Of a stretch of 64,000 nt of DNA, positions 22,183 through 59,539 are shown piece by piece. The notes below the pieces were generated by a model. That model was not told the DNA's origin. It saw only the letters and a list, made by a program, of their open reading frames with translations, and did not search any database. Made by a program: the position numbers and the translations under genes. The DNA lies in assembly GCF_008084145.1 (NCBI RefSeq), contig NZ_VSDO01000001.1, positions 1,130,840-1,194,839 of the forward strand. Direction: 5' to 3'. The stretch is from Paenibacillus faecis. Its GTDB lineage: Bacteria > Bacillota > Bacilli > Paenibacillales > Paenibacillaceae. Each line of letters opens with the position of its first letter. Position 1 is the first letter of the stretch.

Positions 22183-23115
22183 ATGCAACAGCAAACCTTT
22201 ACCTTCGGCAATGACGCGGGGCATCAGGTGTTCGTCTACCTTTGGACCCCTGCCCCCTCCGTTCGCCTCCGGGGCGTGCTGCAGATCGCTCACGGCATGA
22301 GCGAGACGGCGGAACGGTACCGTCGGTTTGCCGAGGCGCTGACCCAAGCGGGCTTTGCCGTGTACGCCAACGACCACAGGGGACACGGGCGGACGGCGGC
22401 GAACCCGGGGCAGCTCGGCTGGCCGGGACCCGACGGCCTGAACGGAATGGTCCGGGATATGATCGAGGTCGGCAGAGGCGCCAGGAACGATCATCCCGAT
22501 CTTCCCCTGTTTCTGATGGGGCACAGCATGGGCTCTTTTTTGACGCAAAAGACGATGTACACCGCCCCGGAACTTTACAGCGGCTTCATCCTCTCGGGAA
22601 CCAACGGGCCGCGGGGAATGCTCTCCTTCGGCCAGCAACTGGCCCGGTGGCAGGCGGTCTTCCAGGGACAGGAGCACCCGAGTCTGCTGCTCAACGCGCT
22701 CTCGTTCGGTAGCTTTAATCGCGCTTTCCTGCCGATGCGCACGCCATTCGATTGGCTTTCCCGCGACCAGCGGGAGGTCGACCGGTTCATCGAAAATCCG
22801 CTCTGCGGATTTATCTGCAGCGCCGGATTCTTCCAAGGACTGTTCGGATTGCTTCGCGAGATTCATCGGCCGGAGCTCATGCGGAAAATCCCCAGGGACA
22901 AACCCGTATACGTGTTCGGAGGCGACCGCGATCCGGTCGGCTTGAACGGAAAAGGCGTCGGCCGTCTTATCGCCCTGTACAAGAAACTGGGGATCGAAGA
23001 TCTCGAAGTCAAATTGTACCCGGAAGGCCGGCATGAAATGCTTAACGAAATCAACCGGGACGAGGTGACCGCGGATGCGCTCGCTTGGCTTGAAAGGCAC
23101 TTGCCTTCGGCATAA
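22183..23115 (+). CDS. Alpha/beta hydrolase (monoacylglycerol lipase / lysophospholipase-like)
   Basis: A 310-residue cytosolic hydrolase of the Hydrolase_4 group. The nucleophile elbow 'LMGHSMGSF' holds the catalytic serine, Asp lies in 'YVFGGDRDPVG' and His in 'EGRHEMLNE'. 'VLQIAHGMSETAERY' forms the oxyanion region. Length and motifs fit monoacylglycerol lipases. It is the last gene of the mnmL operon, 15 bases after the VOC gene, with AAAGGAAG as ribosome site. No clear terminator follows. Confidence 0.88.
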   Translation: MQQQTFTFGNDAGHQVFVYLWTPAPSVRLRGVLQIAHGMSETAERYRRFAEALTQAGFAVYANDHRGHGRTAANPGQLGWPGPDGLNGMVRDMIEVGRGARNDHPDLPLFLMGHSMGSFLTQKTMYTAPELYSGFILSGTNGPRGMLSFGQQLARWQAVFQGQEHPSLLLNALSFGSFNRAFLPMRTPFDWLSRDQREVDRFIENPLCGFICSAGFFQGLFGLLREIHRPELMRKIPRDKPVYVFGGDRDPVGLNGKGVGRLIALYKKLGIEDLEVKLYPEGRHEMLNEINRDEVTADALAWLERHLPSA

Positions 23116-23329: not shown

Positions 23330-23545
23330 CCACCGCATAGCGGCCATTTGGGGCGCTATTTGCGCCCGATTCGTCTCCCGGGGCAAAATAGCGGCCAAAA
23401 AGGGCCTTATTACTCTGATGCGGGCCCCAAAATCAGGTTTTGACCCGCTTTTCTAAAAAATAAGGGCCCAAAAGTCCGCTATTTCATACCGATGAGCCAA
23501 ATTCGACAAAATAGCGCCTCTAAAGACGCTTATTCCTCGGTACTT
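23330..23545. repeat. Family B hairpin repeats (ATAGCGGCC type)
   Basis: A chain of small hairpins built from AATAGCGGCC...GGxCGCTATT arms: around 23338-23368, 23396-23425, 23459-23492 and 23509-23533, the last preceded by CAAATTCGACAAAATAGCG. The same AATTCGAxAAAATAG linker is found in the copy at 42131-42245. Confidence 0.7.
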
Positions 23546-23815: not shown

Positions 23816-24007
23816 AAATTCCTGCAAATCTGCAGGTTTTTTTCCCGATTTGAACCCCATTTCATAAATACCTGCAAATCTGCAGGCATTTTGGGCAGCA
23901 AACGCCCGTTTCTCAGAATCGTCCGGAAATTCCTGCATTTTTGCATCCTTTTGCTTTTTGTTAAAGAGAATGAGCGGAAATTCCTGCACTTTTGCATCTT
24001 TTTTTGT
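23816..24007 (+). repeat. Family A element, four phased units (copy 1)
   Basis: Units of the form AAATTCCTGCA-N4-TGCA(GG/TC)TTTT begin at 23816, 23866, 23927 and 23978, giving spacings of 50, 61 and 51 bases. Unit 1 is a hairpin CCTGCA/TGCAGG followed by seven T. The second copy at 40181-40370 keeps almost the same spacing although the sequence between units has diverged. Confidence 0.85.
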
Positions 24008-24073: not shown

Positions 24074-24090
24074 CGTACTCACGAGCCAAC

Positions 24091-24121
24091 CTCTTCCTCT
24101 TCCTCTTCCTCTTCCTCTTCC
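24091..24121. repeat. Hexanucleotide simple repeat (CTCTTC)5
   Basis: Five tandem CTCTTC units, GAAGAG on the minus strand, lie two bases past the kinase stop codon. In frame they would read Glu-Glu if the stop were bypassed. Confidence 0.85.
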
Positions 24122-24123
24122 CC

Positions 24124-27100
24124 TTACTCCCCTTCCGCATCCTCCGGTGCGGCGTTGCCTTCTTCCTCCTGAGGCTGGTCCAGCCAGCTCCGGATCATCG
24201 AAAGCAGTTGAGCGCTGTTCACCGGCTTCGTGATGTAGTCGGATGCCCCGGCTTCCAGGCAGGCCTCCCGGTCCCCGCTCATCGCCTTGGCCGTCAGCGC
24301 GATAATCGGCAGATCCCGGAACTCCGGCTTTTGCCGGATGGCCCGTGTCGTTTCGTAGCCGTCCATGATCGGCATCATAATATCCATCAGCACGATTTCG
24401 ATCGAAGGGGTATTCTCCAGAATCTGAATGGCCTCCTGCCCGTTCTCGGCCGGAATCACCTTCATATTGTGCCGTTCCAGAATCGTGGTCAGCGCAAAAA
24501 TATTCCGGATATCGTCATCGACGACAAGAACCTGCTTCGACTTGATCATCTCGTCCGATTCATGCAGCTTCACCAGCGTTTGCCGCGATTCGTCCGGCAG
24601 ATTCTCCGCCTTCCGGTGCAGGTACAAGCTGGTTTCGTCCATCATCTGCACCGGAGTCTTGACCTCCTTGATCACGGAGGACTTCATCAGATCCTCGAGC
24701 TGGTTTTCCTGCTCCGGCGTCCACTTCCGCTGCCGGTTCAGGATGATCGGCACGGCTTTGTTCTGCATATTTTTGTGAATATCGTAAATCAAGCCGAACA
24801 CATCCGTGCCGCCCAGGTCGTTGTCGATCAAGATGACGTCGAACCTCTTCGCTTTCAACTGATTTAGCGCCTTGCGGCCGGTGTCGCAAGCTACAATTTC
24901 AAGGTCGTTGTTATCCAGCAGCTCCACCGATTCCTTCCGGCGCGCCTCGTCGCTCATGACGATCAACAGCCGGTGGGTGTCCCGGTTTGAGAACTCCCGC
25001 AGTTGATCCAGCTTCGACTCCAGCTCTTCATTGGAAACCGGTTTGCGGATGTATTCGTAGACGCCTTTCTGCCGCAGCTCGATCTCATCGTCCTCTACCG
25101 TAATAACGCAAATCGGGATATGCCGTACGCTGAGATCGTTTTTCAACTGGTCGATGATGAGCCAGCCATCCATATCCTTCAACCGCAAATCCAGCGTGAT
25201 GGCATCCGGCCGATACTTCTGGGCAAGCTCCAAAGCCCCGGTTCCCCGGGTGGTGATAATTCCCTTGATCCCTTTTTTATGCAGCACATCGAGAAGAATT
25301 TCGTTAAACTTCACATCATCTTCCACGATCAAAAATACGGAATCCCCCGGCTGAATCGAATCCCGGTCATCCCGGATCACCCGTTCTTCCTTCGTCACGC
25401 CGGACCGCTTCGGTTCTCGCGGCGAGACGTCGATGACTTCCGGGACATAACGCGCGGCCGAAGCGGGCTCCGAGACCGTCTCGGCGTCTTCCTCGGGCTC
25501 ATGGCCCGGAATGTCCGTATACAGCGGCAGATACAAGTTAAAGACACTGCCTTTGTTCACGACGCTGTACAGCGTAATTTCTCCGCCGAGCAGGGTCGCG
25601 ATCTCCCGGGAGATCGCGAGACCCAGGCCGGTTCCTCCGTATTCCCGGCTCGTGCTGCCGTCGGCCTGCTGAAACGCCTCGAAAATAATCGCCTGTTTGT
25701 CGACAGGGATACCGATCCCCGTATCGCTGACGGAGAAGCAAATGACTTCCTTCGCCCGGTTCAGTTTCTCGTTTCCGGCGCTCCAACCGTCCTCGGCTTT
25801 GCGGACGTGCAGTAAAACCTGGCCTTTCTCCGTAAATTTGAACGCGTTGGAGAGCAAGTTCTTCAGCACTTGCTGCAGCCGTTTCGGATCGGTCACCAGG
25901 CTTTCCGGAAGATTCCGGTCCAGCTTGACCGCGAAGTCCAGCTGCTTCTGTTCCGCCATATGGAGGAAGGTTCGCTCCAGGCTTCCTTTGATTTCCTTCA
26001 GCTTAATCTCGTTGTAATCCGCGGTCACCGTGCCCGACTCGATCTTCGACAGGTCGAGAATGTCATTGATGAGCTCCAGCAGCTCCGTCCCCGCGTCCTG
26101 GATCGTCTGGGCGAATTTCACTTGGGAATCCGTCAGATTCCGGTCGGGATTTTCCGCCAGTTGCTCGGCCAGGAGAAGAAGGGAGTTCAGCGGCGTGCGC
26201 AGTTCATGGGACATATTGGCCAAAAATTCGGATTTATAGCGGGATGTTAAGGCCAACTGCTCCGCCTTCTCCTCCAGCACGCGTTTCGCGATTTCGACCT
26301 CGTTGTTTTTGCTTTCGACCTCGGCTTTCTGCAGTACGAGCAGCCGGGCTTTTTCCTCCAGCTCCTCGTTCGTTTTCTGCAGTTCCAACTGCTGGTTCTG
26401 CAGTTCCTCCGTCAAGGATTGGGATTGCATAAGCAGTTCTTCGGTCCGGCGGTTCGCCTGCATCGTGTTGATCACGATGCCGATCGATTCCGTCAACTGG
26501 TCAAGGAAGTCGAGGTCGATCGCGGTAAACCGGCGGAAACTGGCAAGCTCCAGGACCGCAAGCACCTGATCCTCAAAAATGATCGGGAGCAGCACGATAT
26601 TCAACGGAGCCGCCTCGCCGAGACCCGACGAGATCACGACGTAATCCTCGGGCACATTCGTCAGCAGGATGCGCTGCTTCTCGATCAGGCATTGGCCGAC
26701 AAGCCCTTCGCCCGCCTTGAATTGATTGGACAAATGCTTCCGCTGCTGGTAAGCGTAGCTGGCGAACAGCACCAAGGTCGGCTCGCCGCCGATCTGCTCG
26801 TTGATGTACATCACTCCATGCTGCATGGAAACAAGCGGAGCCAGCTCCGACAAAATCATGCGGGAGACCGCGTACAAATCACGCTGGCCCTGCAGCAGAC
26901 GGGAGAACTTGGCCAAATTCGTCTTGAGCCAATCCTGCTCGGTGTTGATCCGGGTCGTCTCTTTGAGATTACGGATCATTTCATTTACGTTATCCTTCAA
27001 TACGGCCACTTCGCCGGCCGCGGCGACATCGATGCTGCGGGACAAATCTCCCTTTGTCACCGCGGTGGCGACGGTGGTGATGGCGCGGACCTGCGAGGTC

Positions 27101-29640
27101 AGCGTGCTCGCCATGTAGTTAACGTTATCCGTCAGATCCCGCCACGTCCCGGCCGCTCCCGGAACGTTCGCCTGGCCGCCGAGCTTGCCTTCCGCTCCCA
27201 CCTCGCGGGCCACCGTGGTGACCTGATCGGCGAAAGTCGCCAGCGTATCGATCATGTTGTTGATCGTGTCCGTCAATTCCGCGATTTCACCCTTCGCTTC
27301 CACCGTCAGCTTCTTCTCCAGATTGCCGTTCGCCACCGCCGTGACGACCTTCGCGATGCCGCGGACCTGATCCGTCAGGTTGGCGGCCATAATATTCACG
27401 TTGTCGGTCAGATCCTTCCATATCCCGCCGACGCCGTTAACCTGCGCTTGTCCGCCGAGCTTGCCGTCCGTGCCGACTTCGCGGGCCACCCGCGTCACTT
27501 CGGAGGCGAAGGAGTTCAGTTGATCCACCATCGTGTTGATCGTGTTCTTCAGTTCCAACAATTCGCCTTTGACATCGACGGTGATCTTCTTCGACAAGTC
27601 GCCATTCGCGACCGCCGTCGTGACACCGGCGATATTGCGCATCTGGATCGTCAGGTTGCTGGTCATCGTGTTTACGGTATCGGTTAGGTCTTTCCAGGTC
27701 CCGGACACATCCTTCACGTCCGCTTGGGCCCCGAGCTTGCCTTCCGTTCCCACCTCGCGGGCGACGCGCGTCACCTCGGAAGCGAACAGGCTGAGCTGAT
27801 CCACCATCGTGTTCATGGTGTTCTTCAGCTCCAAGATCTCGCCTTTCGCATCGACGGTAATCTTCTTCGACAGATCGCCCTTCGCCACCGCGGTCGTAAC
27901 CTCCGCGATGCCGCGCACCTGATCGGTCAAATTTCGCGCCATATTGTTGACGCCCTCGGTCAAATCCTTCCACGTGCCGCCTACGCCCTTCACCTCGGCC
28001 TGGCCGCCGAGCCGGCCTTCGGTCCCGACCTCCAGCGCCACGCGGGTCACTTCGGAGGCAAAGGTCGACAGTTGATCCACCATCGTGTTGATCGTATTTT
28101 TCAGCTCCAAAATTTCTCCCTGCACGTCGGCCGTGATCTTCTTCGACAGATCCCCGTTGGCGACCGCCGTCGTCACGACGGCGATGTTCCGTACCTGGTT
28201 CGTTAAATTGGAGGCCATGTAATTGACGCTTTCCGTCAAATCCCGCCACGTCCCGGCCACGCCGCGAACCTGGGCCTGTCCGCCGAGAATGCCGAGCGTT
28301 CCCACCTCGCGGGCCACCCGCGTGACCTCGGAAGCAAAGGTAGACAACTGATCCACCATGGTGTTGATCGTATTTTTCAGCTCCAGGATCTCGCCCTTCG
28401 CATTCACCGTAATATGCTTGGATAAGTCGCCTTTGGCGACGGCGGTCGTGACTTCCGCGATATTCCGTACCTGATTCGTCAAATTGGACGCCATATAATT
28501 GACGCTTTCCGTCAAATCCCGCCACGTCCCGGCCACCCCGGTCACCTCGGCCTGCCCGCCGAGAATCCCTTCGGTCCCGACCTCCAGCGCCACCCGCGTG
28601 ACCTCGGAGGCAAAGGTGGACAACTGATCCACCATCGTGTTGATCGTGTTTTTCAGTTCCAGAATCTCGCCCTGAACGTTGGCCGTAATCTTCTTCGACA
28701 GGTCCCCGTTGGCCACGGCGGTCGTCACGACGGCGATGTTGCGCACCTGATCGGTCAGGTTCGAAGCCATGTCGTTGACGCTTTCCGTCAAATCCTTCCA
28801 CGTTCCCGAGACGCCCTTCACTTCGGCCTGGCCGCCCAGCTTGCCCTCGGTTCCGACCTCCCGGGCCACCCGGGTCACCTCCGAAGCAAACATGGAGAGC
28901 TGGTCCACCATCGTGTTGATCGTATCCTTGAGCTCCAGAATTTCGCCCTTCGCGTTGACCGTAATCTGCTTCGTCAAATCGCCGTTGGCGACGGCGGTCG
29001 TCACCGCGGCGATATTGCGCACCTGGTCGGTCAGATTCGCGGCCATATTATTAACGCTGTCAGTCAAGTCTTTCCAAGTGCCCGAGACGCCTTTCACATC
29101 GGCCTGGCCGCCCAGCTTGCCCTCGGTACCGACCTCCCGGGCGACCCGGGTCACCTCCGAAGCGAACGTACCGAGCTGATTGACCATCATATTGATATTG
29201 TTGGCCATCCGCAAATACTCGCCGGTCAAAGGTCTGCCCTCGAATTCGACTTCGACTTTCTGGGTCAAATCCCCCTGGGCGACCGCGTTGATCACCCGGG
29301 CGACTTCCGTCGTGGGCTGGACAAGATCGCTGACCAGACCGTTCAACGACTCTACGATAACTTCCCAGCCGCCGCCGGTATTTTTATGTTGGAATCTTCG
29401 GGAAAGCTTGCCTTCCTTGCCGACGACCTGGGCGACCGTTCGAATTTCGCCCGCAAGGTTCTCCTGCATGTCCATAATTTCGTTAAAGGTGTCCGCCACT
29501 TTTCCGGCGATACCGGTTTTGTCGTAAGGCATCCGGAAGGTAAAGTCTCCCTTTTTCATCGCTACCAATGCATTCAGCAATTCGCCGGCGTCGATCCCGT
29601 CGCGGGGCGGCGGAGATTGCTGCTGATCCTGATTCGACAT
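24124..29640 (-). CDS. Soluble multi-HAMP hybrid histidine kinase with three receiver domains
   Basis: About 1,838 residues with no membrane segment. Roughly residues 25-890 are HAMP units in a 92-residue double repeat, alternating '[11 protein letters not shown]' and '[11 protein letters not shown]' types (10 and 9, about 19 in all). A GAF domain follows (about 900-1045), a coiled coil, HisKA with 'SHELRTPLN' (about 1150), a HATPase domain with '[19 protein letters not shown]', and three receiver domains; the first and last keep the phospho-Asp ('[11 protein letters not shown]', '[13 protein letters not shown]'), while the middle one has 'IDNDLGG'. The layout recalls fungal group III (Nik1/Os-1) osmosensor kinases and related bacterial proteins. 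Start ATG 29640 has GAGAGGATCGAGG upstream. No transmitter partner is adjacent. Confidence 0.95.
27000..29556. repeat. 276-bp coding repeats of the HAMP kinase
   Basis: The DNA for the HAMP units is itself a tandem repeat of 276 bases, with long nearly identical stretches, such as the codons for '[15 protein letters not shown]' and '[11 protein letters not shown]'. Unequal recombination could change HAMP number in steps of two. Confidence 0.85.
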
Positions 29641-29783
29641 CCTCGATCCTCTCCCGACATCTTGTTTATAGACATATATATACAACCTATGACAAAATCT
29701 TAACCTTTAAATAGTTTACTACGCAAATCAACGCGCTGTCATTAACCGTAAAGACATCCGGCACAAAGACCCAGAAAAGAGGA

Positions 29784-38289: not shown

Positions 38290-38608
38290 AACATAAACTC
38301 CTTGATCCTTTGAACAGGACGTATTTCTTCCATAAGTTTAGTTTACCGGGCCGAGCCGCAATGGGCAACACGCCGGCCCGCATCCGGACTGGCAATCCTT
38401 ACATGATGCGCTCCGTTCCGGTCCATACTTACCATTATAACGCCATGCGCAAAAAAGAGGGGTATAGCATGATGCGGAGGCAACTCTAGAAGTCGGGAGA
38501 ACGTATTAGTTAGCTAAGGTCTCAGGGCGCTGCTTGCTTGTACTCGACCCCAATCTCCGTGGTATAGTAGAGTCGGATTATAATAACGGATGGAGAAGCG
38601 GCTATTTT
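38290..38608. other. Divergent intergenic region between recQ and rlmCD
   Basis: It must hold promoters for both genes; a TATAGT-like -10 (38562-38567, plus strand) is the only fair match. No gene or repeat was recognised. Confidence 0.5.
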
Positions 38609-40120
38609 ATGAAAAATCAAAATCAAACCAAGCACGAAAAAACGTTTAAGCATACAAAGAAAGCGGGCTCCAAGGGACCCGGTTCGGGAAAAGCGGGCTC
38701 GCGCGGCGGTCCAGGCGGTCCCGGTCAAAAGATGGCCCCCCGGGTAGCGAACCGCGAATCCGCGGAAGAGCTCAAGGCCGGCGACCGGATCGTCGTGACC
38801 GTCAAACGGCTCGGGATCAACGGCGAAGGCGTCGGGTATTACCGGCGGAAAGCGGTATTTATCGGGGGCGCGCTGCCGGATGAGGTGATTAAGGCCGAGG
38901 TGACCCGGGTGGAACCCAAGTTCATCACCGCCCAAATCCTGGAGATCGAGAAGCGCTCCCCGTACCGGGTCGAGGCTCCTTGCCCGGTATTCGGCATCTG
39001 CGGCGGCTGCCAGATTCAGCATCTTTCTTATGAAGGACAGCTTAAGGGCAAGGAGGATCTCGTTCGCGAAGCTTTTTCGCGGTACGCGGGGATGGAGCAG
39101 GTGAAGATGAAGCCGATCCTCGGCATGGACCACCCGTGGGGGTATCGCAACAAAGCCCAGCTTCAGTTGGGGATGCAGGAGGAAGGGATGATCGCGGGGC
39201 TGTACGGCCTGGACTCGCATCGTCTGGTCGATATCACCGGCTGTCCCATCCAGCATCCAAAGATCAATGAAGCGGTCGACCGGGCGCGGAACGTGCTGGA
39301 ACGGCTGAAGATTCCCGTTTACCGGGAAAAAGGCGGGCAAGGCCTGGTACGGACCCTCGTCGTCCGCTGGGGCTTCCAGTCCGGCCAGCTGCAAATCACG
39401 CTGGTGACCGCAAGCGACAAGCTGCCGCAGCGCGAGCAGCTGATCAAGGAGCTCCGGCTGGCCATCCCGGAGCTGACCAGCATCGCGATGAACGTCAATC
39501 CGAAGAACACGTCGCTCGTGTTCGGCAGCAAAACGTTCATCCTCTGGGGCGAGGACCATATCCAGGAGTCGCTCGGCGACCTGGATTTCACATTGTCGCC
39601 CCGCGCGTTTTTTCAGCTGAACCCGTTGCAAACGGTGAAGCTGTACGAGTCGGTGCGCGCGGCAGCCGGACTGACCGGCCGCGAGACGGTCGTCGACGCC
39701 TATTGCGGCACCGGCACGATCGGCCTCTGGCTCGCCCCGTACGCGCGCGAGGTGCGCGGGATCGAGGCGATCCCCGAGGCCGTCGCGGACGCCAAGGCGA
39801 ACGCCGAGCGGAACGGGCGCGGCAATGCGGCCTTCCATGAAGGCTTGGCGGAAGAGCTCCTTCCGCGCTGGGTGAAGGCCGGCTTCTCGCCCGACGTCAT
39901 CGTCGCCGATCCGCCGCGGACCGGGCTCGATCCTCGCTTCCTTGAAGCCGTGCTCCGTACGAAACCGAAGCGTTTCGTCTACGTTTCCTGCAATCCGTCC
40001 ACGCTGGCAAAGGACTGCAAGGTGCTGACGGACGGCGGCTACAAGCTCGAATGGGTGCAGCCGGTCGATATGTTCCCGCAGACGAGCCATGTGGAGAGCG
40101 TGTCGTTGTTGGTTAGATAA
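38609..40120 (+). CDS. rlmCD: 23S rRNA (uracil-5-)-methyltransferase RlmCD
   Basis: 503 residues. After a Lys/Gly/Pro-rich N-terminal tail (about residues 1-45) comes a TRAM domain ('VVTVKRLGINGEGVGYYRRKAVFIGGALPDE' region), the 4Fe-4S cysteines 'CPVFGICGGC' plus 'TGCPIQHP', and a RumA-type methyltransferase domain with 'VDAYCGTGTIGLWLA' and the catalytic 'YVSCNPSTLAKD'. B. subtilis RlmCD methylates U747 and U1939 of 23S rRNA. ATG 38609 is preferred to the longer frame from 38534, with GGAGAAG ten bases upstream. The last 17 bases are duplicated at 41544-41560. Confidence 0.94.
   Translation: MKNQNQTKHEKTFKHTKKAGSKGPGSGKAGSRGGPGGPGQKMAPRVANRESAEELKAGDRIVVTVKRLGINGEGVGYYRRKAVFIGGALPDEVIKAEVTRVEPKFITAQILEIEKRSPYRVEAPCPVFGICGGCQIQHLSYEGQLKGKEDLVREAFSRYAGMEQVKMKPILGMDHPWGYRNKAQLQLGMQEEGMIAGLYGLDSHRLVDITGCPIQHPKINEAVDRARNVLERLKIPVYREKGGQGLVRTLVVRWGFQSGQLQITLVTASDKLPQREQLIKELRLAIPELTSIAMNVNPKNTSLVFGSKTFILWGEDHIQESLGDLDFTLSPRAFFQLNPLQTVKLYESVRAAAGLTGRETVVDAYCGTGTIGLWLAPYAREVRGIEAIPEAVADAKANAERNGRGNAAFHEGLAEELLPRWVKAGFSPDVIVADPPRTGLDPRFLEAVLRTKPKRFVYVSCNPSTLAKDCKVLTDGGYKLEWVQPVDMFPQTSHVESVSLLVR
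40101..40117. repeat. Left 17-bp direct repeat, 3' end of rlmCD
   Basis: TGTCGTTGTTGGTTAGA ends the rlmCD coding sequence just before its TAA. An identical copy lies at 41544-41560. The two bound 1,426 bases containing repeats, a zinc-ribbon remnant and a nucleotidyltransferase gene. Confidence 0.85.
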
Positions 40121-40180
40121 TAAAAGAGAAGTTACTATTGGTTGCCGGCTAGGGCAGCGTCAGGCAAATTTGACTAACAA

Positions 40181-40370
40181 GAATTCCTGCATATCTGCAT
40201 GTTTTTTTCCTGTTCAGAGCAAAAATTTTAAAATTCCTGCGATTCTGCAGGAATTTTCGGCGAAAGCGGCTTGATTCTCTAAAATCGCTAGAAATACCTG
40301 CAGATTTGCATCTTTTTTCGCATACCCTCGTGGATCGGTCTAAATTCTTGCAGATTTGCATCTTTTCGCA
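40181..40370 (+). repeat. Family A element, four phased units (copy 2)
   Basis: Units begin at 40181, 40231, 40292 and 40342: spacings 50, 61 and 50 bases, against 50, 61 and 51 in the copy at 23816. The linker between units 2 and 3 is also alike (TTTTCGGC...GCGGC...TTCTCTAAAATCG). All units have a T-rich end on the plus strand. Confidence 0.85.
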
Positions 40371-40388: not shown

Positions 40389-40590
40389 TTTGAATTAAAA
40401 GGAAATATACCCGTTAATTTGGCGCGTATGCTGCTGCAGAGGCGAATTAGCTGGAGAACCTCCCGTTAATTCGCCTGAAAATGGGTATATCGACAAAAAG
40501 GCCGCGAAATAGATGGAGTTTTTCCAGCTAAATCCGATAGAAGCGCCAGGAGCGGTACATTAACGGGAGATTTTCCCGTTAAAGATGTAA
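40389..40590. repeat. Family C repeat block (TTAACGGGA type)
   Basis: CCCGTTAAT words alternate with AGCTGGA/TCCAGCT words, ending in a hairpin of TTAACGGGA and TCCCGTTAA arms (40559-40582). The same hairpin, with one change, is at 58369-58382 onward in the block at 58250-58440. Confidence 0.75.
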
Positions 40591-40672: not shown

Positions 40673-40936
40673 TTCAACCAATATAGATATCTTGATGAGG
40701 AAAACATTATCTATTACGACAAGTACGATAACGAGTTCTGTCCCTCCTGTAATAAATGGTTGACTGCTCCGTGTAGAGACTCTTCTTGTATTTACTGTAA
40801 AGTTCGACCTATAAAGCCTTTGGAGACCAAATCTCTTGCTGATATGTCATCAAGAGAATTAGAGTTGAAAATGACATGGTGTTGGCGTTGTAAATGTGAA
40901 AGACATCGGATGACGTATAGGAGGTGTTTTCAATAG
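40673..40936 (+). pseudogene. Cys-rich zinc-ribbon protein without a start codon (remnant)
   Basis: An open frame of 87 codons has no ATG, GTG or TTG between the preceding stop (40670-40672) and its first cysteines. It encodes two zinc-ribbon-like modules, 'CPSCNKWLTAPC...CIYC' and 'CWRCKCERHRM', too ordered to be chance. Either the start was lost or translation begins unconventionally (ATT at 40706 has AGGAAAAC upstream, weak). The stop TAG overlaps the start region of the next gene. Base composition is AT-rich compared with the core genes around. No family was recognised. Confidence 0.55.
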
Positions 40937-41496
40937 AACCTTATGCTTCCGTATTTACAACCATGAAGGGGTTTAATAAGCCTTGGGCAATTGCTGGAGG
41001 TTGGGCGATAGACCTCTTTCTTGGCAAAACTACAAGAGAGCATAGTGACATTGAAATTGTTGTGTTTAGAAACGACCAAATAAGTATTCTTGAATACTTG
41101 TCTGGATGGGAATTCAAGAAGGTTGTCGGTGGGAAAATTGAACCCTGGGGAGTAGATGAAAGGTTAGAATTACCTGTACATGAAACGTATGCAGAACGAT
41201 TAAACGAAAAGATAGAGATTCTTCTTAATGAGCTTGAAGGTAAAGAATGGGTTTATCGCAGAGATCCTAGAATTCGAAGAGAATTGTCTAAAGCTATCAT
41301 GAAAACAACTAATGGAATTCCTTACCTTCGTCCGGAAATAACATTGCTTTACAAATCAAAAGGTGCGAGACCGAAAGATGACGTTGATTTTGAGAATACT
41401 TTCTCCCGGTTGGATTTTGAACAAAGGCGGTGGCTTCAAGGTTCGTTAAGGATCGTTTATGGCGAGCATCCTTGGATTAAGTTTCTGAAAAAATAA
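40924..41496 (+). CDS. Nucleotidyltransferase (aminoglycoside 2''-adenylyltransferase-like)
   Basis: About 180-190 residues. 'WAIAGGWAIDLFLGKTTREHSDIEI' carries the GG-W-D and HxDIE motifs of the small aminoglycoside and lincosamide nucleotidyltransferases, which adenylylate a drug hydroxyl. The start is problematic: AGGAGG (40919-40924) is followed eight bases later by ATA (40933), exactly where ATG is expected; the GTG at 40924 overlaps the ribosome site, and the first ATG (40963) has none. Translation may be coupled to the upstream remnant, whose TAG overlaps the ATA. AT-rich codon use and flanking direct repeats suggest acquisition. Resistance itself is not shown by sequence. Confidence 0.75.
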   Translation: MFSIEPYASVFTTMKGFNKPWAIAGGWAIDLFLGKTTREHSDIEIVVFRNDQISILEYLSGWEFKKVVGGKIEPWGVDERLELPVHETYAERLNEKIEILLNELEGKEWVYRRDPRIRRELSKAIMKTTNGIPYLRPEITLLYKSKGARPKDDVDFENTFSRLDFEQRRWLQGSLRIVYGEHPWIKFLKK

Positions 41497-50335: not shown

Positions 50336-50366
50336 AAATTCCTGCAGATTTGCATCTTTTTGGAGT
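50336..50366 (+). repeat. Single family A repeat unit
   Basis: AAATTCCTGCAGATTTGCAT followed by CTTTTTGG has the same core as units of the four-unit elements at 23816 and 40181, but stands alone 47 bases after the ABC ATPase stop. Confidence 0.75.
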
Positions 50367-56955: not shown

Positions 56956-57771
56956 ATGTTTAAAATCGGTGATTTTTCCAAACTGGTCAGAGTATCAATA
57001 AGGATGCTGCGGCATTACGACGAAATTGGACTGTTAGAGCCAATGTCCACGGACGAGTTTACGGGTTACCGCTACTACTCTGTGGAGCAGATTCCCCGGG
57101 CTAACCGAATCCAGGTTTTGAAAGAGATGGGATTTTCCCTGGCGGAAATATCGGGCGTAATGAATCAGGATCTGGATGCCACACAACTGCTCAGCCTGTT
57201 GGAAAACCGGAAGCGTCAAATTGCGGAAGTCATCGAGAGTGAACACACGAAACTGCGGCGCGTCGAGTTTCTGATCGGCCAACTTAACAAGGAGGATATG
57301 TATATGAACTATGAAGTAACTGTTAAGCAGATTCCCACCTATAAAGTTCTGGCGCTGAGAGATACCCTACACGCTTATAACGCGGAGGGGTCGTTGTGGA
57401 AGGAGTTAGGGGATTTTGTCCAGGAGCACCATGTTAAGGTGACCGCACCATGCTACGCGATATATTACGATGAGGGTTATAAAGAAGGGGATGTCGACGC
57501 GGAAGTCACGATGTGCTTCCAGGGCCAAGCGGCCGAATCTGACCGTATCAAGGTGAGGGAACTCGAAGCCGTTCCCGAAATGGCCTGCATCTTTCATCAT
57601 GGTCCGTTCGAGGAAATGTCGGCGGCCTATCATGCCCTGGGCGTTTGGCTGGAATCCAACGGTTACCGCTGGAACGGCCCGCATCGGGCTATCTACCATA
57701 AAGGGCCGTGGACCGGGGAAGATCCGGCCGACTATCTGACCGAAATTCAAGCTCCCGTCACGAAAAAATAA
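56956..57771 (+). CDS. MerR-family regulator with GyrI-like effector domain
   Basis: 271 residues. The N-terminal MerR winged helix ('MFKIGDFSKLVRVSIRMLRHYDEIGLL' in its first two helices, 'TGYRYYSVEQ') is followed by a long dimerising helix and a C-terminal GyrI-like/BmrR-type ligand domain (about 118-265). Such proteins bind hydrophobic cationic compounds and untwist 19-base-spaced promoters. The only promoter of that kind seen nearby is its own, so it is autoregulated; an efflux target is not evident. GAGGAGGCCTT precedes the ATG. Confidence 0.92.
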   Translation: MFKIGDFSKLVRVSIRMLRHYDEIGLLEPMSTDEFTGYRYYSVEQIPRANRIQVLKEMGFSLAEISGVMNQDLDATQLLSLLENRKRQIAEVIESEHTKLRRVEFLIGQLNKEDMYMNYEVTVKQIPTYKVLALRDTLHAYNAEGSLWKELGDFVQEHHVKVTAPCYAIYYDEGYKEGDVDAEVTMCFQGQAAESDRIKVRELEAVPEMACIFHHGPFEEMSAAYHALGVWLESNGYRWNGPHRAIYHKGPWTGEDPADYLTEIQAPVTKK

Positions 57772-57840: not shown

Positions 57841-58269
57841 CTAACCAAAGTAGGATATTCTTCCAGTAAAAAGGAATTTTCCGTTGTTATCGCGGATACC
57901 GACACGGAGTTTCAAGATATTGCCGCGGACCTCGGTTATTTTGCCTCGGAACATAAGGAGACCGACTCCGTTTTCTGTCCGGACAAAACACCAACGCGCT
58001 ATGAGCTGCCCGCAGGGTTCTCCATCACGAGCATGGAGGATGGCCTGGACTTGTACCAGTACGGGCGCGTCTTATGGAGGGGCTTCGATCATGAGGCCAA
58101 CGGGGAAGGCTCATTCCGGTTTACCCCGGAAACCGAACAGGCTTTAAGTGCGGAAATGCTACGTCCTCACGTGGATTTGAGCCTGAAGGTGGCCGTTCTC
58201 ACTCCGGAAGGGAACTACGCTTCCTACTGCGGCATGTGGTACGAAAATAGAGGGAAAATTTCCCGTTAA
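57841..58269 (+). pseudogene. GNAT acetyltransferase fragment, truncated at both ends
   Basis: The frame from about 57841 reads 'VVIADTDTEFQDIAADLGYF...', 'GFSITSMEDGLDLYQYGRVLWRGFDHE', 'LKVAVLTPEGNYASYCGMWYENR' and then stops within a family C repeat at 58267-58269. This is the N-terminal and central part of a larger GNAT protein: the acetyl-CoA motif A, which should follow 'YCGMWY', is missing, and there is no good start codon or ribosome site at the 5' end. The junction with the repeat is exact to within a few codons. Confidence 0.72.
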
Positions 58270-58440
58270 TTCCCCGCTTTTTGCCCATGGATCAAATTTA
58301 GCAGGAAAACCTCCAGCTATTTCGCGGCCGGGCCGCCGATATCCGCCATTTCGGACGAATTAACGGGAGATTTTCCCGGTAATTCATCTCTGCCGCCGCA
58401 TAGGCACCAAATTAACGGGCAAAATTCCCGTTAATTTTTC
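58250..58440. repeat. Family C repeat block (copy 2)
   Basis: CCCGTTAAT words at 58268, 58380 and 58427 alternate with AGCAGGA/CCTCCAGCT; hairpins TTAACGGGA...TCCCGGTAA (58369-58382) and TTAACGGG...CCCGTTAA (58415-58436) match the block at 40389-40590. It truncates the GNAT fragment. Confidence 0.75.
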
Positions 58441-58501: not shown

Positions 58502-59401
58502 TTACTCCAAATCCACGCCGTACCGTCTCTCCTCTTTCGTTGCCCTGAAGCCTAACGATTCGTAAAGGGATAGCGCGGAAGCGTTTGCGGTATGCACCAT
58601 CAGATTGGCGCGCGAAAGACCGTGAGCTTTAAGGTAAAGCAAACCCTGTGCCAGCAAAACCTTGGCCAAACCCCGTTTTCTCCAAGGCTCCCTGACAAAA
58701 ACGTCCTCGATCGTCCCTTCGTCCCCCTCCCGCCAGGCCATTAATCCGGCGACGATCCGGTCTTCTTGCCGGATCACCAGGGAGGTCCACAGGTCTTTTC
58801 CCTTGTATTCCCTCAGCCTTTCAAGCCCTAGCGGCGTATCCGGCCAAATTTCCGCTTCTATCTGCAAATACTCGCGCTCCTCCCGGGCGGACTCCATCCT
58901 CCAGCAGGAATAATCAAATTCCGGGACCGGCGCTGGTTCCGGGATCGGTTCATGCAAGTCGCGGCTCATGCAGAACAGACTGTGTAAGGGACGATATCCT
59001 TTGTCGGTAAAATAACGGGTGTTGACTTCCTCCCCGGCATCATTTCCCATACAAAGCAAAGTGCCGTATTCGGTAGACAGCGACTTTTTCAATGCCAGCG
59101 ACCTAGCGAACAAATGCGAATAAACCCGATCCAGCAGGACCGTATCGCCCTCCCTTTCCGGAACGGTCTTCAAGTTGAGATAAATGGAGTGCTTGCATGC
59201 CGTAGACCGGCCCGGCGGAACGACATTAATGACGGCGACCTGACCTTTGGCGATCATTCTGCCGTGCTCGAAAGCGCAGTATACATTCTCCCAATTGTCC
59301 TCATCGCCGACCCACCAAAACAAGGCGTCCTTGTTTCTCATGACGGCTTGATACAGTTCGCCCAGCATGGGCATATCTTCTTTATCAAAATGGCGGATCA
59401 T
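58502..59401 (-). CDS. Two-domain GNAT acetyltransferase
   Basis: 299 residues. The N-terminal half ('WWVGDEDNWENVYCAFEHGRMIAKGQV') resembles a degenerate GNAT fold; the C-terminal half has motif A 'DVFVREPWRKRGLAKVLLAQGL' and the end signature 'ANASALSLYESLGF'. The substrate is unknown. The start is ATG 59401, five bases after GAGAGG, although the frame is open to 59503. It lies near the other GNAT fragment, but they are not copies of one another. Confidence 0.85.
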   Translation of the reverse strand: MIRHFDKEDMPMLGELYQAVMRNKDALFWWVGDEDNWENVYCAFEHGRMIAKGQVAVINVVPPGRSTACKHSIYLNLKTVPEREGDTVLLDRVYSHLFARSLALKKSLSTEYGTLLCMGNDAGEEVNTRYFTDKGYRPLHSLFCMSRDLHEPIPEPAPVPEFDYSCWRMESAREEREYLQIEAEIWPDTPLGLERLREYKGKDLWTSLVIRQEDRIVAGLMAWREGDEGTIEDVFVREPWRKRGLAKVLLAQGLLYLKAHGLSRANLMVHTANASALSLYESLGFRATKEERRYGVDLE

Positions 59402-59539
59402 TGTCTCCTCTCCCGCGGGAGATGGAATCGTGCTAATGGCAAACGCCTCCTTCGGCTCTATTATCTCGACCTTAACACGGGCCTCCCGGGGTATCCAGGC
59501 CAAACTCGGCTATACTTGAAAATGACACGCCACGCAAAA

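What the first reader, a model, noticed from the sequence alone, without database searches (positions are those of the whole stretch)
23816..24007. Family A: four-unit element with conserved unit spacing, copies 16 kb apart
Two elements (23816-24007 and 40181-40370) each have four AAATTCCTGCA-N4-TGCA-T-run units, at spacings 50/61/51 and 50/61/50. The linkers have diverged, but geometry, orientation of T-runs and the TTCTC-x-AATCG motif before unit 3 remain. The spacings are not multiples of three, so coding is unlikely. Selection on a folded RNA or a phased protein-binding array is a better explanation. A lone unit lies at 50336.
Basis: seen in the sequence. Interest (0 to 1): 0.72.

Follow-up and report, generated by a model that had tools for sequence, protein, structure and literature searches.

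The report
Phased DNA arrays paired with nuclease genes
Bacteria of the Paenibacillus group scatter short four-site DNA arrays with strictly fixed spacing through their genomes, and the array types go with particular nuclease-plus-DNA-binding genes, which looks like an undescribed kind of repeat-and-enzyme system.

Summary
The window genome holds 94+95 matches (both strands) of the three-unit geometry, reversed control 0. The same geometry (about 51/61/51 bp, dyad-symmetric, palindromic TGCA-N4-TGCA units) occurs in 14 of 40 genus and 28 of 296 order genomes sampled, with linkers that look unrelated. Substitutions avoid the TGCA cores (9/861 against 171/2420 in linkers of 27 recent copies). 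A linked gene was found: an unnamed ~223-aa protein with a DUF559/Vsr-like nuclease domain and a winged helix. Of 97 gene loci, 75 have a geometry-fitting array within about 0.7 kb, mostly downstream; where an array is found, its palindrome follows the protein clade. A terminator-like leader precedes 75 of 97. The window carries arrays of three types, matching three of its genome's four paralogues. Best reading: phased multi-dimer binding platforms of a nuclease-wHTH family, dispersed like REP/RAYT elements but with another enzyme and geometry. Binding is inferred, not shown; what the complex does and how arrays spread are unknown. A folded-RNA reading is disfavoured by the geometry. Nine searches of an open-access library found no description.

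The parts
23816..24007 (+). Family A array 1: four TGCA-N4-TGCA units at 23816/23866/23927/23978; between a hydrolase gene (22183-23115 +) and a hybrid histidine kinase gene (24124-29685 -), a convergent position
40181..40370 (+). Family A array 2: four units at 40181/40231/40292/40342, downstream of a tRNA_U5-meth_tr-type methyltransferase gene (38534-40120 +)
50336..50354 (+). Lone family A unit: remnant with the left flank of unit 1 and the right flank of unit 4
23343..23527 (.). Family C array (unit like GCC.TTTGGGGCGCTATTT), spacing 51/63/51, about 290 bp from family A array 1; same unit type as beside paralogue gene L344 (G000:C3:61788-62426)
   Evidence: score 97, equal to the cut used for the window; 193 shuffled 0.7-kb regions reached at most 94.5
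40397..40580 (.). Family B array (unit like AACGGGAAAATCTCCCGTTA), spacing 52/61/51, immediately beside family A array 2; same unit type as beside paralogue gene L343 (G000:C3:461029-461682)
58248..58433 (.). Family B array, spacing 51/63/52, between a MerR-type gene (56956-57771 +) and a GNAT gene (58502-59503 -)

Best explanation
Each array is the DNA platform of a cognate protein: a DUF559/Vsr-like PD-(D/E)XK nuclease domain joined to a MarR-like winged helix. Dimers are taken to bind the palindromic units, two pairs facing each other, spaced about 51, 61-62 and 51 bp. That is 5, 6 and 5 turns at about 10.2 bp per turn, so the four sites would face one side of wrapped or looped DNA and close into one complex. 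The gene, usually with a terminator-like leader, mostly sits next to an array; further arrays of the same type are dispersed between genes, as REP sequences are around a RAYT gene. Shown: geometry, dyad symmetry, gene-array linkage, unit sequence going with protein clade, conservation of unit cores above linkers. Inferred: binding, stoichiometry, wrapping. Not known: whether the nuclease cuts, what the assembled complex does, and whether the protein or another enzyme moves the arrays.
For: Geometry across species with unrelated-looking linkers. A scan that fixes geometry but not sequence finds 18 arrays in 800 kb of the window genome against 0 in a Markov-shuffled control; 17 are of types A (9), B (5), C (3), the unit types found beside three resident paralogues, and one is a GC-rich stretch inside an ORF. 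Gene linkage: array score above the maximum of 193 shuffled regions in 66 of 96 downstream and 18 of 97 upstream regions, both in 9, either in 75. With the first spacing left free from 30 to 80 bp, 49 of the 50 regions that beat the best of 96 random segments chose 50-52 bp. Unit sequence goes with clade. All 14 array-bearing genus genomes and all 28 array-bearing order genomes carry the gene family; 31 of 40 and 219 of 296 carry it overall (P 0.011 and 0.00013, not corrected for relatedness; the two samples share genomes). Unit cores conserved: 9/861 against 171/2420 substitutions in 27 recent copies; 7/192 against 71/757 in six orthologous pairs.
Against: No binding or cleavage was measured. 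A structure prediction from three sequences failed (mean pLDDT 41.9), so fold evidence is only Pfam DUF559 (28 of 39 members at E<=0.01, best 2e-6) and weak MarR-like winged-helix matches. 22 of 97 gene loci show no adjacent array above threshold, and 2 or so of the 18 upstream hits look like simple repeats. No clean empty site was found, so movement of single arrays is not demonstrated. In this genome the recent burst of family A copies lies largely inside IS200/IS605-like ends, so another enzyme may have moved them.
Confidence: 0.72

Rival explanations
1. Host-domesticated regulator or nucleoid organiser: the protein binds the arrays to shape or insulate chromosome segments or to regulate neighbours, and mobility is only historical.
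For: Unit cores are conserved at resident arrays while linkers evolve like flanks, with 1 gap position in linkers against 76 in flanks over six orthologous pairs. Arrays from many species lie at convergent gene ends more than at divergent ones: 42 against 15 of 127 with both neighbours called, compared with 22 and 38 of 161 gaps of 200 bp or more in part of the window genome.
Against: Patchy distribution, many paralogues with different specificities per genome (up to 9 matches in the genus, 10 or more in the order, where scoring stopped at 10), gene copies with stops, and strongly varying array number look more like selfish or conflict-driven DNA. The convergent count contains repeated loci and a null from one genome; in C1 of the window genome itself the 15 arrays outside ORFs are 3 convergent, 2 divergent, 10 tandem.
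Confidence: 0.3
2. Ordinary MITE: the repeat is simply the inside of an IS200/IS605-derived miniature element and the spacing is inherited.
For: Of 47 G000 copies examined, 27 carry the right hairpin end and 23 the left hairpin or its neighbour; 16 carry neither. Orientation is uneven along contigs: C2 11 of 11 minus, C1 11 of 12 plus, among the 40 long matches listed.
Against: Both complete window arrays and other older copies lack those ends; spacing is kept where linkers look unrelated; arrays stand beside the nuclease gene in several genera with clade-dependent sequence. The ends were not searched for systematically in other species.
Confidence: 0.08
3. Folded RNA or bidirectional terminator made of four hairpins.
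For: Units are short hairpins next to T-runs, and many arrays lie at 3' ends of genes. All six flank positions pair above shuffles, by about 3 to 17 sd.
Against: Spacing kept to about 1 bp, mirror symmetry and free drift of linkers are not needed for hairpins; palindromic protein sites give the same flank pairing; no Rfam match in the window; unit sequence goes with a DNA-binding protein clade.
Confidence: 0.05
4. Defence or addiction device: the arrays hold a potentially toxic nuclease in an inactive, self-marking state, and release or absence of arrays triggers cutting of foreign DNA.
For: Putative catalytic D, D, E are kept in the 94 of 95 copies where the region is complete, followed by K in 72; the terminator-like leader suggests tightly held expression; several specificities per genome.
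Against: No PADLOC match worth the name for three proteins tried, no partner gene searched for or noticed, no evidence of toxicity; K is replaced by D, M, Q or H in 22 copies.
Confidence: 0.12

Closest known systems
REP/BIME/REPIN repeats with RAYT (TnpA-REP) genes
   Same: Short palindromic repeats dispersed between genes, inverted pairs with preferred spacing, a dedicated gene flanked by its own repeat type, several types in one genome (search listing and passages of PMC2817692, PMC3116915, PMC3733652 seen)
   Different: RAYTs are tyrosine (HUH) transposases with GTAG-tagged single or double palindromes; here a DUF559/Vsr-like nuclease with a winged helix, four sites at fixed 51/61/51 bp, no GTAG or CGTC tag in the TGCA-type unit, array mostly on the downstream side, and a terminator-like leader
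Tn7-family ends with TnsA (recalled, from no call)
   Same: TnsA also joins a PD-(D/E)XK nuclease to a winged helix, and Tn7 ends carry several protein sites in series
   Different: TnsB/TnsC genes were not looked for; the array is one four-site block rather than two transposon ends
DUF559 / Vsr-type and AbiEi-related proteins
   Same: Nuclease domain matches Pfam DUF559 (28 of 39) and MTES_1575 (8 of 39); 3 of 39 touch AbiEi_4
   Different: Winged helix follows the nuclease domain; no description of linked arrays or leader turned up in the searches made

Membership tests
REP/RAYT (REPtron) | Palindromic repeats dispersed in extragenic DNA in many copies | tested here: met
   (3 of 18 arrays in C1 overlapped a called ORF, one of them the GC-rich artefact)
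REP/RAYT (REPtron) | Gene flanked by two copies of the repeat in inverted orientation | tested here: inconclusive
   Array on at least one side in 75 of 97 loci, on both sides in 9
REP/RAYT (REPtron) | Gene product is a Y1/HUH transposase (PF01797) | tested here: not met
   Pfam gives DUF559 plus winged-helix matches, PF01797 not among the families listed
REP/RAYT (REPtron) | GTAG or CGTC tag at one end of the palindrome | tested here: not met
   Base profile of 708 TGCA-type units shows no such tag within 6 bp of the core; other unit types not profiled
REP/RAYT (REPtron) | Mobilisation by the linked enzyme | not testable with these tools
   No clean empty site found
PD-(D/E)XK nuclease, DUF559/Vsr-like | Conserved D...E-x-(K/D) catalytic pattern | tested here: met
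   DDEK 72, DDED 15, DDEM 5, DDEQ 1, DDEH 1, one incomplete, of 95
PD-(D/E)XK nuclease, DUF559/Vsr-like | Fold confirmed by structure | tested here: inconclusive
   AlphaFold2 model unusable, mean pLDDT 41.9; no structure search was run on it; sequence profiles hit only winged helices in the PDB
IS200/IS605-derived MITE | Subterminal hairpin ends on the repeat | tested here: not met
   Right end on 27 of 47 G000 copies, absent from both complete window arrays; not looked for systematically in other species
Rfam RNA family | Match to a curated covariance model | tested here: not met
   Window 0 matches at gathering; 16 gene loci gave two AdoCbl riboswitches and three sub-threshold matches

The most novel reading that the evidence does not exclude
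A class of self-spreading nuclease systems in which a single nuclease-winged-helix protein assembles as four dimers on a phased array, becomes active only in that closed complex, and thereby copies or inserts arrays (for the TGCA clade possibly at CTAG), with new specificities arising by joint change of winged helix and palindrome.
Probability: 0.15. Interest if true: 0.95.

Novelty: categorically new. Interest (0 to 1): 0.85.

Why it matters
It links many unexplained intergenic repeats in Paenibacillaceae to one unnamed nuclease family, gives a natural series of matched protein-DNA specificities for learning winged-helix recognition, and offers a second, enzymatically different case beside REP/RAYT for asking how repeat populations persist in bacterial genomes. 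The strict 5/6/5-turn geometry makes the assembly model directly testable in vitro.

Tried and rejected
Folded RNA: flank pairing exceeds shuffles but does not discriminate; disfavoured on geometry. Replication-polar motif: the first listing suggested all-plus on C1, but copies on both strands exist and the arrays are mirror-symmetric; the uneven orientation of the long matches I attribute to the IS605-like copies, without a test against replication direction. CTAG as a universal insertion site: CTAG is 29/kb at 20-40 bp outside family A arrays against 0.40/kb background in the window genome (44 arrays, many of them related copies), and 2.3-4.0/kb in the first 40 bp against 1.15/kb in 193 other TGCA arrays, where CATG also rises (6.4 against 4.0/kb in one bin); 12 per 2280 bases beside TGCA-type gene arrays, but 1 per 1320 and 0 per 1260 bases beside family B/C and other non-TGCA arrays. 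So it is at most a TGCA-clade feature. Empty sites between two close species: 180 kb against 220 kb compared; two candidates inspected, neither clean. Viral contigs: the eight hits carry a different TGCAATCTTGCA-like repeat, spacing about 49/63, similar among themselves. NCBIfam, PADLOC and PHROGs gave only weak matches, mostly to winged helices. The reversed-window control was invalid, because reversal keeps geometry and palindromy; shuffles were used instead. One search failed with a script error; its table was made. Structure model unusable.

Limits of counts: the 97 gene loci include one gene twice (L292 and L342). The random-segment nulls come from C1, which itself holds arrays. One search used 80 of the 97 stretches, and its finder allowed outer spacings of 49-52 only; the unconstrained histogram of distances between exact sites in the same loci peaks at 50-52, 61-62, 111-114 and 161-166, beside an 8-bp ladder that some tandem repeat must cause. 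One search's 145 array contexts include the same contigs under two names and both strands of one array, and 46 of 145 overlapped a called ORF of 90 aa or more (greedy ORF calls, not checked one by one). Orthologue counts rest on 6 of 15 arrays of one species; 9 had no orthologue above the cut in the fetched set.

Full report
OBSERVATION. Shuffles of the window give 2.0 unit matches on average and at most 7 in 100 shuffles, against 16 observed, both strands counted. The window genome (6.34 Mb, 9 contigs) has 446+424 single-unit matches at two mismatches or fewer, against 3+2 for the reversed pattern. A 244-base consensus finds 40 long copies at 91-96% identity, 40 of 215 candidates being scored. 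The lone unit at 50336 matches the element's left flank up to unit 1 and its right part from unit 4 on.

GEOMETRY ACROSS SPECIES. Copies in other species of the genus share the units and the spacing but not, to the eye, the linkers. A pattern that fixes only TGCA-N4-TGCA and two spacing windows matches 14 of 40 genus genomes and 28 of 296 order genomes (15 of 48 genera), with 0 matches for the reversed pattern in every genome listed; the two samples share genomes. In 80 of its 97 stretches I found 74 four-unit arrays in 69 loci; the commonest spacings are 51/62/51 (20) and 51/61/51 (16). Units 1-2 and 3-4 are mirror images: read in dyad orientation the central four bases are most often AAAG in both halves, 104 of 354 each, in 177 arrays not from the window genome. 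Spacings of 51, 112 and 163 bp are 5, 11 and 16 turns at 10.2 bp per turn (arithmetic; the wrapping it suggests is inference).

THE LINKED GENE. Among genes beside arrays one family recurred: a protein of about 223 aa in five loci, each with the array about 90-400 bp downstream of its stop. It matches Pfam DUF559 (28 of 39 diverse members at E<=0.01, best 2e-6) and has a MarR-like winged helix at its C-terminus. NCBIfam, PADLOC and PHROGs gave no convincing family for the proteins tried. The pattern D, D, E, K is kept in 72 of 95 copies, with D, M, Q or H for K in 22 and one copy incomplete. In the genus 31 of 40 genomes have the family and all 14 array-bearing ones do; in the order 219 of 296 have it and all 28 array-bearing ones do (hypergeometric P 0.011 and 0.00013, relatedness not corrected). 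The family is thus present in many genomes without TGCA-type arrays, as expected if other clades use other units.

GENE AND ARRAY ARE LINKED, AND THE PALINDROME GOES WITH THE PROTEIN. Scanning beside gene copies for any four mirror-arranged, self-similar, palindromic units gave 69 of 96 downstream regions above a score exceeded by 3 of 200 random C1 segments. With shuffled controls 66 of 96 downstream and 18 of 97 upstream regions exceed the maximum of 193 shuffled regions, 9 loci on both sides, 75 in all. When the first spacing was left free between 30 and 80 bp, 49 of the 50 regions above the best of 96 random segments chose 50-52 bp; the middle spacing then scattered (46-79), which off-centre windows would cause. 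The unit differs by clade: TGCA-N4-TGCA; CGGGA-N4/5-TCCCG; GTAAAACCTAC; TAGTGAAA..TTTC.CTTA; CTGGATTTC.TGTA; TTGGA-N5-TCCAA; GGC..TATT and others, following the protein tree and the residues around the putative recognition helix. This was read from the tree; no formal covariation test was run, and genes and their arrays share descent. Where both sides have an array, the two usually show the same unit type, for example L294, L306, L313, L343.

THE WINDOW HOLDS THREE TYPES. The window genome has four matches of the gene family (fetched). L342 (G000:C3:305046-305699) has family A units at +30, +81, +132, a weak one near +194 and one at +245 after its stop, that is the 51/62/51 array with one extra unit; L343 has family B units downstream and upstream; L344 family C, score 94; L345 a fourth type. 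A scan of the window finds family C at 23343-23527, family A at 23819-24000 and 40184-40364, family B at 40397-40580 and 58248-58433. In 800 kb of contig C1 the same scan finds 18 arrays against 0 in a Markov-shuffled control: 9 A, 5 B, 3 C and one GC-rich artefact inside an ORF. Three close pairs of different types were seen (window 23343/23819 and 40184/40397; C1 316743/317147).

SELECTION. In 27 recent family A copies substitutions are 9/861 in the TGCA cores, 15/432 in the central four bases, 48/1287 in the six bases on either side, 171/2420 in linkers and 144/1556 outside (core against linker P 4e-14, copies treated as independent although they share ancestry). In six orthologous pairs between two close species (about 95% local identity): 7/192 core, 15/96 centre, 71/757 linker, 273/2924 flank, with 1 gap position in linkers and 76 in flanks (core against linker P 0.008). 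Both arrays had to be recognisable to enter that count, which favours intact cores and spacing.

LEADER. 75 of 97 gene loci have upstream a stretch like GACGAAG(A/C)ACGTCC, a hairpin and a T-run, often shortly after a TATAAT-like box. In 60 of the 70 distinct leaders the main form was recognised: the lower stem is nearly fixed in sequence and the upper stem varies with pairing kept, for example CG, AT, TA and GC at one pair (pairs taken from individual folds). A pattern for it matches 34 places in 24 of 40 genus genomes and 0 for the reversed control; the 16 genomes without a match comprise the 9 without the gene family and 7 with it. Of the 34 places 33 lie within about 230 bp upstream of a family gene listed (compared by hand). 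It looks like an intrinsic terminator in the leader, that is, attenuation; this is inference.

HOW FAMILY A SPREAD HERE. Of 47 copies examined, 27 carry a right end and 23 a left end like those of IS200/IS605 elements (the likeness is recalled; no IS library was searched), 16 neither, and orientation is uneven by contig. So in this genome such a miniature element probably carried family A. Both complete window arrays lack those ends. CTAG is enriched just outside TGCA-type arrays but not beside other types.

COMPARISON. REP/RAYT and REPIN systems (PMC2817692, PMC3116915, PMC3733652: listing and passages seen) are the nearest in behaviour. The enzyme test fails: no HUH transposase, a DUF559-type nuclease instead; the GTAG/CGTC tag is absent from the TGCA-type unit. 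It may work like them; it is not one of them. No report of DUF559-linked arrays or of these repeats was found in nine searches of an open-access library that lacks most subscription papers and all preprints. I call it categorically new for the combination of enzyme and phased four-site architecture; a reader who takes dispersed repeats plus cognate enzyme as one kind would call it a new variant.

On rereading the calls I corrected the wording on RNA pairing (all six flank positions exceed shuffles), the paralogue maximum (scoring cap), the null (3 of 200), the scatter of the middle spacing, the extra unit beside L342, and the list of scripts that joined stretches.

Noticed in passing
L071-L100 and window genome contigs: Many family A copies are nested in a roughly 600-bp IS200/IS605-like miniature element with uneven strand orientation by contig (C2 11 of 11 minus, C1 11 of 12 plus among 40 listed).
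   Followed up: partly
L342-L345 and 71 further gene loci, upstream of the nuclease gene: Leader like GACGAAG(A/C)ACGTCC plus terminator-like hairpin, no Rfam match in the 16 loci searched, tied to this gene family.
   Followed up: partly
flanks of TGCA-type arrays, e.g. L001, L161, window 40149-40152: The rare tetranucleotide CTAG is enriched 10-40 bp outside TGCA-type arrays, not outside other types.
   Followed up: partly
L227 2362-3193 (P. nanensis): Array extended in tandem to five overlapping four-unit blocks with the 51/62/51 phasing kept.
   Followed up: no
L152-L159: Eight viral contigs share a different TGCAATCTTGCA-like triple repeat with about 49/63 spacing.
   Followed up: partly
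L315 2579-2730, L316 1015-1166: AdoCbl riboswitch near the nuclease gene and its array in two genomes.
   Followed up: no
window 40924-41496: Small ORF matching Pfam Aminoglyc_resit (E 3e-9); family name only.
   Followed up: no
window 24090-24125: CTTCCT simple repeat beside the end of the hybrid histidine kinase gene.
   Followed up: no
L182, L196, L197, L199: MAG records of other groups (Flavobacteriales, Alteromonadaceae, unnamed bacterium) also matched the three-unit pattern in the named scan.
   Followed up: no
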